Positions 57,993 through 61,006 of a stretch of 64,000 nucleotides of DNA are shown in pieces; the stretch's first letter is position 1; the number at the start of each line of letters is the position of its first letter. Position numbers and translations under genes: made by a program. A model generated the notes under the pieces. That model was not told where the DNA came from and searched no databases. It saw only the letters and a program-made list of their open reading frames with translations. Source of the stretch: Acidipropionibacterium jensenii DSM 20535 (GTDB taxonomy: Bacteria > Actinomycetota > Actinomycetes > Propionibacteriales > Propionibacteriaceae); assembly GCF_000425285.1 (NCBI RefSeq), contig NZ_AUDD01000008.1, positions 62,001 to 126,000 on the forward strand, given 5' to 3'.

Positions 57993-58199
57993 GTGGGCAT
58001 CTTCACCGACCTGAACCTCAACGGACGCGCACCGGTGCGCGTCCAGCCGAAGATCGGCGAATGGGGGCCCAGGGGGGTTCCCTCCACCCGCGCCAAGAAG
58101 GTTCAGCGGATCATCGCACCGATCGTCTTCGTCCTGGTGCTGGCCGGACTGGCCGCGCTGTTCTACTTCTTCTATCGGATCCTCATTCCGCAGGGCTGA
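57993..58199 (+). CDS. Small single-TM protein, function unknown
   Basis: 68-residue protein with a basic N-terminal part (PSTRAKKVQRIIAP) and one transmembrane helix (about residues 41-63, APIVFVLVLAGLAALFYFFY), ending RILIPQG. The N-terminus is predicted inside. Coding is supported by the leaderless promoter, actinobacterial codon bias and a classical topology. I do not recognise the family. Confidence 0.65.
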   Translation: MGIFTDLNLNGRAPVRVQPKIGEWGPRGVPSTRAKKVQRIIAPIVFVLVLAGLAALFYFFYRILIPQG

Positions 58200-58237
58200 T
58201 TCCGCGGGGCTGAGCGCGGCCGGCCAGGCCCGCTCGG

Positions 58238-58243
58238 TATACT
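58238..58243 (+). promoter_or_regulatory. -10 element of thi operon
   Basis: TATACT, the best -10 hexamer in the window, lies 13 bases before the riboswitch. No clear -35 is seen. Confidence 0.55.
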
Positions 58244-58255
58244 CACAGGCTGAAA

Positions 58256-58336
58256 GACACGGGGTGCCTCCCATCGTGGGGCTGAGATAACACCCGCCGA
58301 ACCTGATCTCATTTGCATGAGCGGAGGGATGTCACG
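58256..58336 (+). ncRNA. TPP riboswitch (THI element)
   Basis: The thi-box consensus elements are in order: ACGGGGTGCC (58259-58268), GCTGAGAT (58281-58288), ACACCCGCCGAACCTGATC (58290-58308) and GCGGAGGGAT (58321-58330). A CTCAT/ATGAG stem (58308-58321) forms the terminal helix; its loop (TTGC) departs from the common AATGC. The 3' element GGAGGG doubles as a Shine-Dalgarno sequence, so TPP binding should hide it and repress translation of the thi genes. Confidence 0.93.
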
Positions 58337-58360
58337 ATGCGTCGGCGCATGCAATGGTGA
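58337..58360 (+). CDS. Seven-codon leader ORF (MRRRMQW) coupling the riboswitch to thiZ
   Basis: ATG 58337 lies 8 bases after the riboswitch GGAGGG, the ideal spacing, and encodes only MRRRMQW before TGA 58358-58360. That stop overlaps both candidate starts of the ABC ATPase gene (ATG 58354, GTG 58357), which has no ribosome site of its own. Ribosomes could therefore reach the operon by termination-reinitiation. A small ATGCG/CGCAT hairpin (58337-58350) spans the ORF. Translation is inferred from spacing only. Confidence 0.5.
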   Translation: MRRRMQW

Positions 58361-59199
58361 ACGCTCCGGTGAGCGGTGCGCGGGCCGGCCGGCCGGCCAT
58401 CCGGATCGACGATGCAAGCTACCGATACCCCCACTCGAGTCATCCGGTGCTGGCCCATCTGAGTCTGACCGCCGCGGTGGGGGAGCACATCGCCCTGGTC
58501 GGCCGCTCGGGGTGCGGCAAGTCCACCCTGCTGAGGCTGATCGCCGGCCTGGCCGAACCCGTCACCGGGACCATCGAGGTGCTGGGCCACCGCGACCCCC
58601 ACGACAGACTGGACGGCTGCGCCATGATGCCGCAGAACGATCTGCTGCTGCCCTGGCTGAGGCTGGTCGACAATGTCGCCATCGGACTGCGCAACAAGGG
58701 GGTGGCGCGCCGTGAGGCGCGCACCCGCGCACTGGCGGTGCTGGACCAGTGGGGACTGGCCGAATGGTCCCGGTCCCGGCCCGACAAGCTGTCGGGGGGA
58801 ATGCGCCAACGCGCCGCCCTGGCCCGTGCCCTGCTGGCCGACAAGCCCGTGCTGCTGGCCGACGAGCCGCTGGGATCCCTGGACGCCATCACCCGTGCGG
58901 ACGGCCAGCGGTGGCTTCGCCGCGCCGTCCTGGCGGCCGGCGCCACGCTGATCCTGGTGACCCACGACGTCGAGGAGGCGCTGCTGCTGTCCCGGCGGGT
59001 CATCCTGCTCGGACCCGCAGGACCGCGACCGGCCGCCGCCCAGGGATCCTGGCCGGGCTGGTTCGACGATGACCGCCGTCGCGAGCAGATCCTGGCCGAT
59101 CCCCGGTTCGCCGCCGCCCGGACCGCCGTCCTGGAGGCCCTCGGCGACTCCGCGGAGGCCTCTGCGGGGTCCGGCCCGGTGCCGGGGGAATCCCGATGA
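58354..59199 (+). CDS. thiZ: ABC transporter ATPase, thiamine/HMP precursor uptake (ThiZ)
   Basis: 281-residue ATP-binding subunit. Walker A is GRSGCGKSTLLRL, the Q-loop MMPQNDLLLPW, the signature LSGGMRQRAALARAL, Walker B VLLADEPLGSLD, and the switch histidine is in VTHDVEEALL. It belongs to the NitT/TauT/ThiZ group. Placement directly behind a TPP riboswitch and before a permease and an NMT1-like binding protein indicates uptake of thiamine or its pyrimidine precursor. Its start is ATG 58354 or GTG 58357, neither with a ribosome site. The end overlaps the permease start (ATGA). Confidence 0.88.
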   Translation: MVNAPVSGARAGRPAIRIDDASYRYPHSSHPVLAHLSLTAAVGEHIALVGRSGCGKSTLLRLIAGLAEPVTGTIEVLGHRDPHDRLDGCAMMPQNDLLLPWLRLVDNVAIGLRNKGVARREARTRALAVLDQWGLAEWSRSRPDKLSGGMRQRAALARALLADKPVLLADEPLGSLDAITRADGQRWLRRAVLAAGATLILVTHDVEEALLLSRRVILLGPAGPRPAAAQGSWPGWFDDDRRREQILADPRFAAARTAVLEALGDSAEASAGSGPVPGESR

Positions 59200-59966
59200 G
59201 GCACCTGATGGCCCGGGTGCTGCCAGCCGCACTCACCGTGCTGCTCGTGCTGGCCGGCTGGATCGGCCTCACCGCCTCCGGACAGGTGGCCGACTACGTC
59301 ATCCCCTCCCCGGGCTCGGTGCTGGCCTCCCTGATGACGAACTGGCCCGACACCCTGGGCCGGGCCACCATGGTCACCGCCGCCGAGACCCTGGCCGGGG
59401 TCGGCGCGGGGGTGGCGGTCGCCGTCGCGATGGTTGTCCTGACCGGCTGCCTGCCCCTGGTCGGGCGCTCCCTGACGCCGTTGCTGGTCGCCTCCCAGGC
59501 CATCCCGACGATCGTCATCGGGCCGCTGCTCACCATCGCCCTGGGGTACGGGATGTCCCCGAAGATCATCGTGGTCGCACTGCTGTGCTTCTTCCCGGTG
59601 GCTCTCAACCTGATGGCCGGGATCGGTTCTGTGGACCCCCGACTCATCGACGCCATGCGCACCCTGAACGCCGGGCGCAGCGCGCTGTTCTGGCGGGTCC
59701 GCCTGCCCCACGCCGCACCCCGCGGATTCGCCGGCCTGCGGGTCTCGGTGACCTTCGCCCCGGTCGCCGCCGTGTTCGCCGAGTACACCGGTTCCACCGA
59801 CGGCATCGGCTATCTCATGCTCCAGGCCATCCCGCGTCTGGCGACCGACTTCGTCTTCGCCCAGGTGGTGGTGCTCACCGCCCTGTCCGGCCTGTTGCTG
59901 GGCGCCGCAACCCTGCTGGAGCGCCTCATCTGCCCCTGGATCACCCCCGAACGAGGAGAATCATGA
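59196..59966 (+). CDS. thiX: ABC transporter permease (ThiX)
   Basis: 256-residue permease with about six transmembrane helices, of the SsuC/TauC-like BPD family. The EAA loop that docks the ATPase is DAMRTLNAGRSALFWRVRLP. The first helix starts at about residue 8 (LPAALTVLLVLAGWIGL). The stop overlaps the start of thiY. With thiZ and thiY it forms one importer. Confidence 0.88.
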   Translation: MRHLMARVLPAALTVLLVLAGWIGLTASGQVADYVIPSPGSVLASLMTNWPDTLGRATMVTAAETLAGVGAGVAVAVAMVVLTGCLPLVGRSLTPLLVASQAIPTIVIGPLLTIALGYGMSPKIIVVALLCFFPVALNLMAGIGSVDPRLIDAMRTLNAGRSALFWRVRLPHAAPRGFAGLRVSVTFAPVAAVFAEYTGSTDGIGYLMLQAIPRLATDFVFAQVVVLTALSGLLLGAATLLERLICPWITPERGES

Positions 59967-61006
59967 CAGCTGTCCACAACCCCACCCTCAACACACCGAT
60001 CAGTCGCCGTCGACTGGGCGGCCTGTTCTGCGGCGCACTGGCCGCCGCAGGCCTGGCCGGATGCGGGCGCACCGAGGCCCGGTCGGCGTCCTCCCCGTCG
60101 GCGAGCTCGAAGCTGAGCCTGCTGCTGGACTGGAACCCGAACCCGGACCACGTCACCCTCTACACCGCCGTGCACACCGGGGCCTTCACCAAGGAGGGGA
60201 TCGAGGTCGGCATCCAGAACCCGGCCAACACCGCCGACGCCGCCAAGCAGGTCTCCCTGGGCCAGGTCGACCTGGCCGTCAGCTACGAGCCCGACACCCT
60301 CATCGCGGTCGGCCAGGGGCTCGACGTCATCTCGGTGGCCGCCCTCATCCCGGTCAGTCTCACCTCCCTGATCGCCAAGAAGTCGCGGGGGATCACCGCC
60401 GGGGCACAGCTCAAGGGCCGGACGGTCGGACTGTCCGGGCTGGCCTCCCAACGGCCCAGCGTGGAGTACATCGCGCGCCGCTCCGGGGTCGATCCGGCCA
60501 CCATCACGATGCCGAACATCCAGCAGAGCCTCAGCCAGGCCCTGCTCACCGACAAGGTGGACGCCATCTACGGCGGTTTCCGCAACATCGAGGGAATCGA
60601 GCTCGCCGAGAAGGTGCCGGTCGACGTCATGCCGGCCACCGAGCTCGGACTTCCCGACTACGCCGAACTGGTGATCATCGCCAGCCGTCGGCGGCTGGCG
60701 CAGGAGAAGGGGTACGCCGAGAAGGTGCGGGCCTTCCTGCGGGGACTGGCCGCCGGTCAGAGCGCCGCCCAGAAGGACCACAGCACAGCCGCCGAGGCGA
60801 TGACCGCCCCGACCAGGGGCTCCTACCAGCCGCAGATGGTCGCCAAGATGGTCGACGCCACCGTCGGGCTGCTGGGAACCGGACCGTTCGGAGTCCAGAA
60901 GCCGGCCGACTGGGCGGCCTTCGCCACCTGGATGCACCGCAACGGGCTGCTCGACAAGGCCCTGGACGGAGCCTCGGGCACCACCAACGACTACCTGCCC
61001 GCCTGA
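59963..61006 (+). CDS. thiY: Substrate-binding lipoprotein, NMT1/Thi5-like (ThiY)
   Basis: 347-residue periplasmic-type binding protein of the NMT1/Thi5 family. The signal peptide has a twin-arginine motif (SRRRLGG) and a lipobox (LAGC, Cys about residue 34), so it is a probable Tat-exported lipoprotein. The mature part begins with LSLLLDWNPNPDHVTLYTAV and has QVDLAVSYEPDTLIAVGQG and LPDYAELVIIASRR segments expected for a pyrimidine-binding ThiY. The ligand is likely HMP or a derivative, supported by the riboswitch. Confidence 0.88.
   Translation: MTAVHNPTLNTPISRRRLGGLFCGALAAAGLAGCGRTEARSASSPSASSKLSLLLDWNPNPDHVTLYTAVHTGAFTKEGIEVGIQNPANTADAAKQVSLGQVDLAVSYEPDTLIAVGQGLDVISVAALIPVSLTSLIAKKSRGITAGAQLKGRTVGLSGLASQRPSVEYIARRSGVDPATITMPNIQQSLSQALLTDKVDAIYGGFRNIEGIELAEKVPVDVMPATELGLPDYAELVIIASRRRLAQEKGYAEKVRAFLRGLAAGQSAAQKDHSTAAEAMTAPTRGSYQPQMVAKMVDATVGLLGTGPFGVQKPADWAAFATWMHRNGLLDKALDGASGTTNDYLPA

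What the first reader, a model, noticed from the sequence alone, without database searches (positions are those of the whole stretch)
58256..58400. TPP riboswitch whose ribosome site drives a seven-codon ORF overlapping the thi operon start
The GGAGGG at the 3' end of the riboswitch is 8 nt from ATG 58337 (MRRRMQW-stop). The ORF stop TGA overlaps ATG/GTG of the ABC ATPase, which has no ribosome site of its own and would be 25 nt too far from GGAGGG. This suggests riboswitch control passed on by translational reinitiation, with possible extra control by three consecutive Arg codons or the overlapping ATGCG/CGCAT hairpin.
Basis: partly seen in the sequence, partly recalled or inferred. Interest (0 to 1): 0.65.

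Follow-up and report, generated by a model that had tools for sequence, protein, structure and literature searches.

The report
Vitamin B1 switch with relay mini-gene
In three related bacteria, an RNA switch that senses vitamin B1 seems not to turn its transporter gene on directly: it appears to control a 6-7 codon mini-gene whose end overlaps the transporter gene's start, so that the ribosome is handed on from one to the other.

Summary
A TPP riboswitch (RF00059, 58250-58346, 57.0 bits, cut-off 54.3) carries GGAGGG at 58323-58328, 8 nt before ATG 58337 of MRRRMQW-stop (58337-58360). The TGA overlaps the ABC ATPase start (GTGA, 58357-58360). The ATPase frame has no start nearer than 25 nt to that SD and no SD of its own in the window (-1.7 kcal/mol; uORF -10.0).

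Of 5 genomes held for the genus, 3 have this ATPase, and all 3 have the layout (MMRRRAR-stop with ATGA in the other two). In four genomes of two other genera the same aptamer SD starts the ATPase directly and in frame; frame offsets (36, 36 versus 35, 35, 59 nt) fit one ancestral frameshift. Other 4-nt-overlap leader ORFs behind TPP aptamers were found, but there the main gene has its own SD.

Most likely: TPP hides the uORF's SD, and the ATPase is made by termination-reinitiation, as published for the M. tuberculosis ppe2 B12 riboswitch. Arg-codon sensing and the hairpin are not supported. No expression data. New variant of a known kind.

The parts
58250..58346 (+). TPP riboswitch aptamer (RF00059)
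   Evidence: cmscan 57.0 bits, gathering 54.3; the last positions of the model are unpaired
58255..58259 (+). 5' strand of helix P1; pairs with 58330-58334 (outermost pair non-standard)
   Evidence: structure line of the cmscan alignment
58302..58305 (+). CCTG, 5' strand of the aptamer helix that pairs with GAGG 58324-58327 inside the SD (one non-standard pair)
   Evidence: structure line of the cmscan alignment
58323..58328 (+). GGAGGG Shine-Dalgarno sequence embedded in the aptamer
   Evidence: sequence; hybrid energy -10.0 kcal/mol for the stretch before ATG 58337
58337..58360 (+). short upstream ORF, MRRRMQW-stop
   Evidence: sequence; counterparts of 7 or 6 codons (ATG at 5 and 8 nt) in G002 and G001 (L120, L121)
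58357..58360 (+). GTGA: stop of the uORF overlapping the GTG start of the ABC ATPase; counterpart of ATGA in both congeners
   Evidence: sequence
58354..59199 (+). ABC transporter ATPase (ThiZ-like); true start ATG 58354 or GTG 58357
   Evidence: ABC_tran PF00005, E 6.1e-29; ORF
59196..59966 (+). ABC permease (ThiX-like), 4-nt ATGA overlap with the ATPase, own SD
   Evidence: PF00528, E 3e-23; SD -8.6 kcal/mol
59963..61006 (+). NMT1/THI5-like substrate-binding protein (ThiY-like), 4-nt ATGA overlap with the permease, own SD
   Evidence: PF09084, E 2.6e-47; SD -8.7 kcal/mol

Best explanation
A translational OFF riboswitch acts through a relay ORF. When TPP is bound, the 3' part of the aptamer (helix with 58302-58305 and P1) holds the GGAGGG closed and the 30S subunit cannot bind. 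When TPP is scarce, ribosomes initiate at ATG 58337, translate seven codons, stop at TGA 58358, and reinitiate without dissociating at the overlapping GTG 58357 (or ATG 58354) to make the ABC ATPase. In the window the next two cistrons are joined by further 4-nt overlaps, so one regulated initiation event could feed the whole transporter operon (those two also have SDs of their own). Shown here: the anatomy, its presence in three genomes of the genus, and the lack of another start near the SD. Inferred: TPP binding, translation of the uORF, and reinitiation. Also inferred: the uORF arose when a frameshift split the poorly conserved 5' end of an originally directly controlled gene.
For: The SD lies in the aptamer. 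Hybrid energy is -10.0 for the uORF against -1.7 for the ATPase start in the window and in G001 and -5.0 in G002; random window positions have median -3.3 and 25th percentile -5.9; the permease and binding-protein starts have -8.6 and -8.7. The first ATG/GTG/TTG of the ATPase frame is 25 nt from the SD in all three genomes; read by eye, no ATT/ATC/ATA/CTG lies nearer either. uORF and 4-nt overlap are present in 3 of 3 genus members with the ATPase, the other two being 67-70% identical to the window's ATPase. The offset from the SD-spaced start to a conserved Pro-Ala-Ile is 35, 35 and 59 nt (all 2 mod 3) against 36 and 36 in the direct genes of G082 and G086. The three uORF genes form a clade (96/98), and the other 10 genes in that 13-row tree are direct. 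The same kind of relay, with reporter evidence, is published for ppe2 of M. tuberculosis (PMC11260477; outline, passages, section 20). Overlap coupling in bacteria is established (PMC6728339, passages).
Against: No expression, ribosome-profiling or mutational data. In PMC6728339 most groups have an SD before the second gene in about half or more of overlapping pairs, and removing it clearly lowered reinitiation in 4 of 5 E. coli pairs; here there is none in the window, so efficiency may be low. G002's -5.0 is better than the random median. Between G001 and G002 the uORF has 1 change in 23 nt against 29 in 183 nt of the ATPase start region, too little to prove constraint. A 4-nt overlap by itself is common after a 1-nt frameshift (21 of 45). 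Only three genomes, all one genus, show this exact form. Energy folding of the leaders did not recover the aptamer (by eye).
Confidence: 0.75

Rival explanations
1. Direct, SD-poor initiation: 30S subunits land at or near the aptamer SD and start at 58354/58357 themselves, the uORF being a by-product of a frameshift.
For: The spacing of 25-28 nt may allow a standby-type or sliding path (recalled idea, not tested); actinobacteria translate many SD-less starts (recalled); the G002 start has a middling hybrid energy of -5.0.
Against: The SD is at usable spacing to another ATG in all 3 genomes, so most ribosomes should start there; ATPase start hybrid energy -1.7 in two of three.
Confidence: 0.13
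2. A separate promoter or a processed, leaderless mRNA starts at the ATPase, so neither uORF nor riboswitch matters for part of its expression.
For: Leaderless mRNAs are frequent in actinobacteria (recalled).
Against: No promoter-like site in 58100-58450, though the scan covers only one promoter type and also found none for the riboswitch itself; the aptamer is kept next to the gene in all three genomes.
Confidence: 0.05
3. Ribosomal frameshifting or stop suppression fuses the uORF peptide to the ATPase.
For: A minor fused product was reported for uPPE2-PPE2 in M. tuberculosis (PMC11260477, passages).
Against: No slippery run before the stop, read by eye; the bases before the stop are not conserved between window and congeners.
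Confidence: 0.04
4. The uORF is a sensor leader peptide, for example for charged tRNA-Arg, or its hairpin regulates.
For: Three Arg codons are conserved in all three genomes; a stem forms in the local fold of the window.
Against: Usual Arg codons, Pfam matches do not point to arginine, no terminator, fold no better than shuffles and sequence not conserved.
Confidence: 0.03

Closest known systems
ppe2 B12 riboswitch with uPPE2 of Mycobacterium tuberculosis (PMC11260477; outline with abstract, passages and section 20 read)
   Same: Riboswitch controls the SD of a uORF; main gene lacks an SD; stop and start overlap as AUGA; uORF translation is essential for the main gene, mainly by termination-reinitiation (shown there).
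   Different: B12 instead of TPP; the uORF is far longer than 7 codons (6.3 kDa with its FLAG tag); the SD is masked by a separate anti-initiation-region stem, not by the aptamer's own conserved helix; here no experiments.
Direct-occlusion riboswitches ('Group 1: Direct occlusion', a section of the review PMC10907184; passages read)
   Same: The SD is part of the ligand-binding fold; 58 of 159 classified TPP loci here have a main-frame start 4-13 nt from the aptamer SD.
   Different: In those the SD serves the regulated gene itself, not a relay ORF.
Termination-reinitiation at overlapping genes (PMC6728339; passages read)
   Same: Stop/start overlap coupling two cistrons.
   Different: There the pairs are ordinary genes and the second start typically has an SD; here the first cistron has seven codons and stands behind a riboswitch.
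ThiXYZ-type transporters for thiamin pyrimidine precursors (name and substrate recalled)
   Same: ATPase, permease and NMT1/THI5-like binding protein behind a TPP riboswitch.
   Different: Only the relay ORF in front.
Eukaryotic TPP riboswitches that act through uORFs by alternative splicing (recalled; PMC5882874 on fungi seen in the search listing only)
   Same: TPP switch and a uORF.
   Different: Splicing-based and repressive (recalled); no kinship in mechanism.

Membership tests
TPP riboswitch RF00059 | Covariance model score over the curated cut-off | tested here: met
   57.0 against 54.3 bits, full-length match; G002 61.9, G001 61.5
TPP riboswitch RF00059 | Binds TPP and changes expression | not testable with these tools
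   needs in-line probing or reporters
Direct-occlusion riboswitch | SD is base-paired within the ligand-binding fold | tested here: met
   GAGG of the SD is the 3' strand of an aptamer helix in the model structure; energy folding of the leader alone did not recover the aptamer fold (by eye), so this rests on the family model
Riboswitch-uORF relay as in ppe2 | SD in the switch correctly spaced to a uORF start | tested here: met
   8 nt in window; ATGs at 5 and 8 nt in G001 and G002
Riboswitch-uORF relay as in ppe2 | Main gene without its own SD | tested here: met
   window -1.7 and G001 -1.7 kcal/mol, weaker than the random median -3.3; G002 -5.0, between the 25th percentile (-5.9) and the median, so less clear there
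Riboswitch-uORF relay as in ppe2 | NUGA overlap of stop and start | tested here: met
   GTGA in window, ATGA in G001 and G002
Riboswitch-uORF relay as in ppe2 | Main gene lost when the uORF is not translated | not testable with these tools
   needs reporter mutants
ThiXYZ transporter | ATPase, permease and NMT1/THI5-like binding protein in one operon | tested here: met
   PF00005, PF00528, PF09084 in the window
ThiXYZ transporter | Transports a thiamin pyrimidine precursor | not testable with these tools
   needs uptake assays
Leader-peptide attenuator | Intrinsic terminator or exclusive stems governed by a stalled ribosome | tested here: not met
   no terminator in 58100-58450; local fold z 0.53 and stem sequence not conserved

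The most novel reading that the evidence does not exclude
Aptamer-embedded SDs cannot move, so when the frame of the gene behind them is broken, lineages repeatedly keep the broken 5' end as a minimal relay ORF and pass riboswitch control on by 4-nt-overlap reinitiation. On this reading riboswitch-to-uORF relays are a recurrent class: the window's genus, Patulibacter minatonensis before a ThiY-like gene, one other genome of the family (G014) before a cytosine/thiamine-type permease, and perhaps a Thermomicrobium/HR28 pair. The 6-7 codon form here would be the smallest of these.
Probability: 0.3. Interest if true: 0.6.

Novelty: new variant of a known kind. Interest (0 to 1): 0.42.

Why it matters
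If true, it would be a bacterial TPP riboswitch that acts through a relay ORF; the listings of my searches of an open-access library (some listings capped, subscription papers mostly not held) showed none. It gives a minimal natural case for asking how few codons a ribosome needs before it can reinitiate, and shows how a frameshift could turn direct riboswitch control into coupled control without losing regulation. It also warns annotators: a gene whose start lies 25 nt from the only SD is not necessarily mis-annotated.

Tried and rejected
Mis-called ATPase start: rejected, since the ATPase frame has no start nearer than 25 nt to the SD, and in G001 and G002 the next one (106 nt) cuts into the conserved region. 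Sequencing error: rejected, since three diverged genomes share the same frame offset. Arg attenuation and hairpin: rejected. Free-energy folding of the 190-nt leaders did not recover the aptamer (by eye) and was not used to judge SD exposure.

Weaker parallels examined. L320/L323 (Thermomicrobium sp. and HR28): leader ORFs of 47 and 49 codons with a GTGA overlap, but 62% identical (29 of 47) against 95% (254 of 267) for the ATPase, and with GGAGG before the main start. L232: uORF of 20 codons; GGAGG of the main start lies in the loop of a possible CCGGGC/GCCCGG hairpin (by eye). L316: uORF of 15 codons; GAGGG before the main start (by eye). L348: MSELCL-stop with GTGA overlap before a dehydrogenase-like gene (by eye), but a later ATG with an SD is as likely. 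L315/L047: SD-spaced ATG out of frame with the ATPase and no overlap, possibly a MAG error. A class-wide pattern for ATGA behind a TPP-like 3' end matched 48 of 394 genomes, many matches not riboswitches (the backwards control matched in 8 genomes by my count of the rows); by eye, not by script, only L348 looked like a new short relay ORF. That pattern does not find GTGA overlaps: it missed the window's own genome.

Survey limits: of 180 RF00059 loci given to, 8 were missed by the regular expression, 13 were duplicates and 159 were classified. The main frame was chosen by codon-position G+C, and 'direct' means any main-frame ATG/GTG/TTG at 4-13 nt, so single errors are likely. Sampling follows high-scoring aptamers, because the tool lists only the best matches. 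In one search, aptamers were sought only within 350 nt upstream by a regular expression. L258 (G086) did not reach the Rfam cut-off; its aptamer is inferred from sequence. The 2-nt deletions carry no information on overlaps, since the frame forbids them.

Full report
What is there. The window holds a TPP riboswitch aptamer at 58250-58346 (57.0 bits, gathering 54.3), followed by an ABC ATPase (58354-59199), a permease (59196-59966) and an NMT1/THI5-like binding protein (59963-61006). That is the gene set of a transporter for a thiamin pyrimidine precursor (ThiXYZ; name and substrate recalled). The ATPase/permease and permease/binding-protein junctions are both 4-nt ATGA overlaps. The same genome has four other TPP aptamers; in one of them a GTG 8 nt from the aptamer SD opens a long frame (L001).

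The junction. In the model structure, GAGG of GGAGGG (58323-58328) is the 3' strand of an aptamer helix with CCTG 58302-58305, and TGTC 58330-58333 closes P1. The SD is therefore part of the ligand-binding fold. The SD is 8 nt from ATG 58337, which opens a seven-codon ORF ending in TGA 58358-58360. The ATPase starts at GTG 58357 (4-nt GTGA overlap) or ATG 58354. Its start region pairs poorly with the anti-SD (-1.7 kcal/mol) against -10.0 for the uORF, -8.6 and -8.7 for the two downstream genes, and a median of -3.3 for 2000 random window positions. In G001 the ATPase start also has -1.7; in G002 it has -5.0, better than the random median though short of the 25th percentile of -5.9 (anti-SD letters from memory). 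The first ATG, GTG or TTG of the ATPase frame is 25 nt from the SD in all three genomes and, read by eye, no ATT, ATC, ATA or CTG lies nearer.

Conservation in the genus. Of 5 genomes held for the genus, 3 have this ATPase at E <= 1e-50. G002 and G001 read GGAGGGATGTCATGATGCGGCGGCGCGCCCGATGAGC and GGAGGGATGTCATGATGCGCCGGCGCGCCCGATGAAC, that is, MMRRRAR-stop or MRRRAR-stop, with ATGA overlapping the ATPase start. Their ATPase/permease junction is an ATGA overlap too; the binding protein was not checked there. The window differs by one codon in the uORF and by a longer ATPase N-terminus, and the lengths keep both frames. All three loci reach the Rfam cut-off. In the uORF, G001 and G002 differ at 1 of 23 positions, against 29 of 183 in the following ATPase region. 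With so few letters this is compatible with constraint but does not prove it.

Other genera. In the family, 8 of 197 genomes have the ATPase at E <= 1e-50. Besides the three, G081, G082, G086 (one genus) and G042 (another) have a TPP aptamer directly before it, and there the SD-spaced ATG (6 to 9 nt) is the ATPase start itself; the G086 aptamer missed the Rfam cut-off. For G005 no aptamer was found within 350 nt upstream. Of the 52 loci given to, 16 showed an aptamer upstream: the 7 just named, 7 more that are direct (6 distinct sequences: L284/L040, L279, L283, L054, L067, L099), and L047 and L053, which are neither. A tree of 13 such ATPases puts the three uORF genes in one clade (96/98). 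Its order relative to G042 and to the G081/G082/G086 clade (82/91) is not resolved, but all 10 other genes are direct, so one gain of the uORF in this genus is the simplest reading. From the SD-spaced ATG to a conserved Pro-Ala-Ile there are 36 nt in G082 and G086, 35 in G001 and G002, and 59 in the window. The genus is shifted by the same frame throughout. The simplest history is one frameshift in the variable 5' end of a directly controlled gene, after which the old start became a relay ORF and the ATPase starts at its stop. This history is inferred.

How often elsewhere. Of 180 RF00059 loci were missed by the expression and 13 were duplicates; 159 were classified automatically. 58 are direct. 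86 have no start within 4-13 nt of the aptamer SD; many of these have a separate SD (by eye). 7 have a start there without such coupling. 1 had no main gene. 7 have a short ORF with a 4-nt overlap to the main gene. These seven form four groups: the three genus members; L232 (G014, same family, before a PF02133 permease); L316 (Patulibacter minatonensis, before a PF09084 binding protein); and the related pair L320/L323. In Patulibacter americanus (L324) the homologous gene is direct and in frame, again pointing to a frame break in one species. In L232, L316 and L320/L323 the main start has its own SD (by eye), so of these only the window's genus seems to depend on the aptamer SD alone.

Chance. 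Deleting 1 nt after the start of 45 direct genes gives a stop within 25 codons with a 4-nt overlap in 4 of 45, and an overlap anywhere within 300 nt in 21 of 45 (the 2-nt deletions gave 0 of 45, but they cannot give this overlap by construction). The overlap alone is thus weak evidence. Persistence of the whole layout in three diverged genomes, without another start near the SD, is the stronger point.

Mechanism. TPP-bound aptamer: SD closed, no initiation. TPP-free: initiation at 58337, seven codons, stop, reinitiation at 58357 (or 58354), then further overlapping cistrons. Published support for each kind of step: SD inside the ligand-binding fold as a mode of control (PMC10907184, passages), overlap reinitiation (PMC6728339, passages), and the complete relay in the B12 riboswitch of M. 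tuberculosis ppe2, where uORF translation was essential for the main gene and proceeded mainly by termination-reinitiation, with a minor fused product (PMC11260477, abstract, passages and section 20). The passages of PMC6728339 also speak against high efficiency here, since removal of the second SD lowered reinitiation in 4 of 5 E. coli pairs.

What was not supported. The Arg codons are the usual ones, no terminator was found, the small hairpin forms in the local fold but does not beat shuffles (z 0.53; 0.89 and 0.98 for the congeners' stretches) and its sequence is not conserved, and by eye there is no slippery sequence for frameshifting.

Novelty. The listings of searches of the open library for riboswitch or TPP riboswitch with uORF, reinitiation, upstream open reading frame, Shine-Dalgarno, actinobacteria or leader peptide showed the M. 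tuberculosis B12 work and fungal TPP papers, but no bacterial TPP riboswitch with a relay ORF. Some listings were capped (20 of 292), I read only the papers named above and PMC6429828 (passages), and subscription papers are mostly not held, so this is no proof of absence. I rate it a new variant of a known kind: known switch, known coupling, new combination, and a very short relay.

Noticed in passing
L316 around 1586-1645 (Patulibacter minatonensis) and L324 (P. americanus, minus strand): A TPP aptamer SD serves a 15-codon ORF (MERSDGPLSTRGTGR) with ATGA overlap to a ThiY-like gene in one species, while the congener reads straight into the gene in frame.
   Followed up: partly
L232, 131-194 (G014): 20-codon ORF behind a TPP aptamer, ATGA overlap with a PF02133-type permease; the permease SD sits in the loop of a possible CCGGGC/GCCCGG hairpin that uORF translation would open.
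   Followed up: partly
L320 and L323 (Thermomicrobium sp., Bacterium HR28): 47- and 49-codon leader ORFs between TPP aptamer and ABC ATPase with GTGA overlap; frame kept through a 6-nt indel, but only 62% identical against 95% for the ATPase.
   Followed up: partly
L348 around 1520-1575 (G609): TPP-like leader followed by MSELCL-stop with GTGA overlap before a dehydrogenase-like gene; a later ATG with its own SD is an alternative start.
   Followed up: partly
family-wide TPP loci (sequences): By eye, two leader types: aptamer 3' end CGAAGGGATGTC with the gene start 6-11 nt on, and CGTAGGGAGTCGGGA with a separate SD and hairpin, the two differing already in the aptamer's last bases.
   Followed up: no
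L002 near 1592 (same genome): An ATG-TGA start-stop pair lies 15 nt behind the aptamer SD; an ATG with a strong SD follows about 100 nt further on.
   Followed up: no
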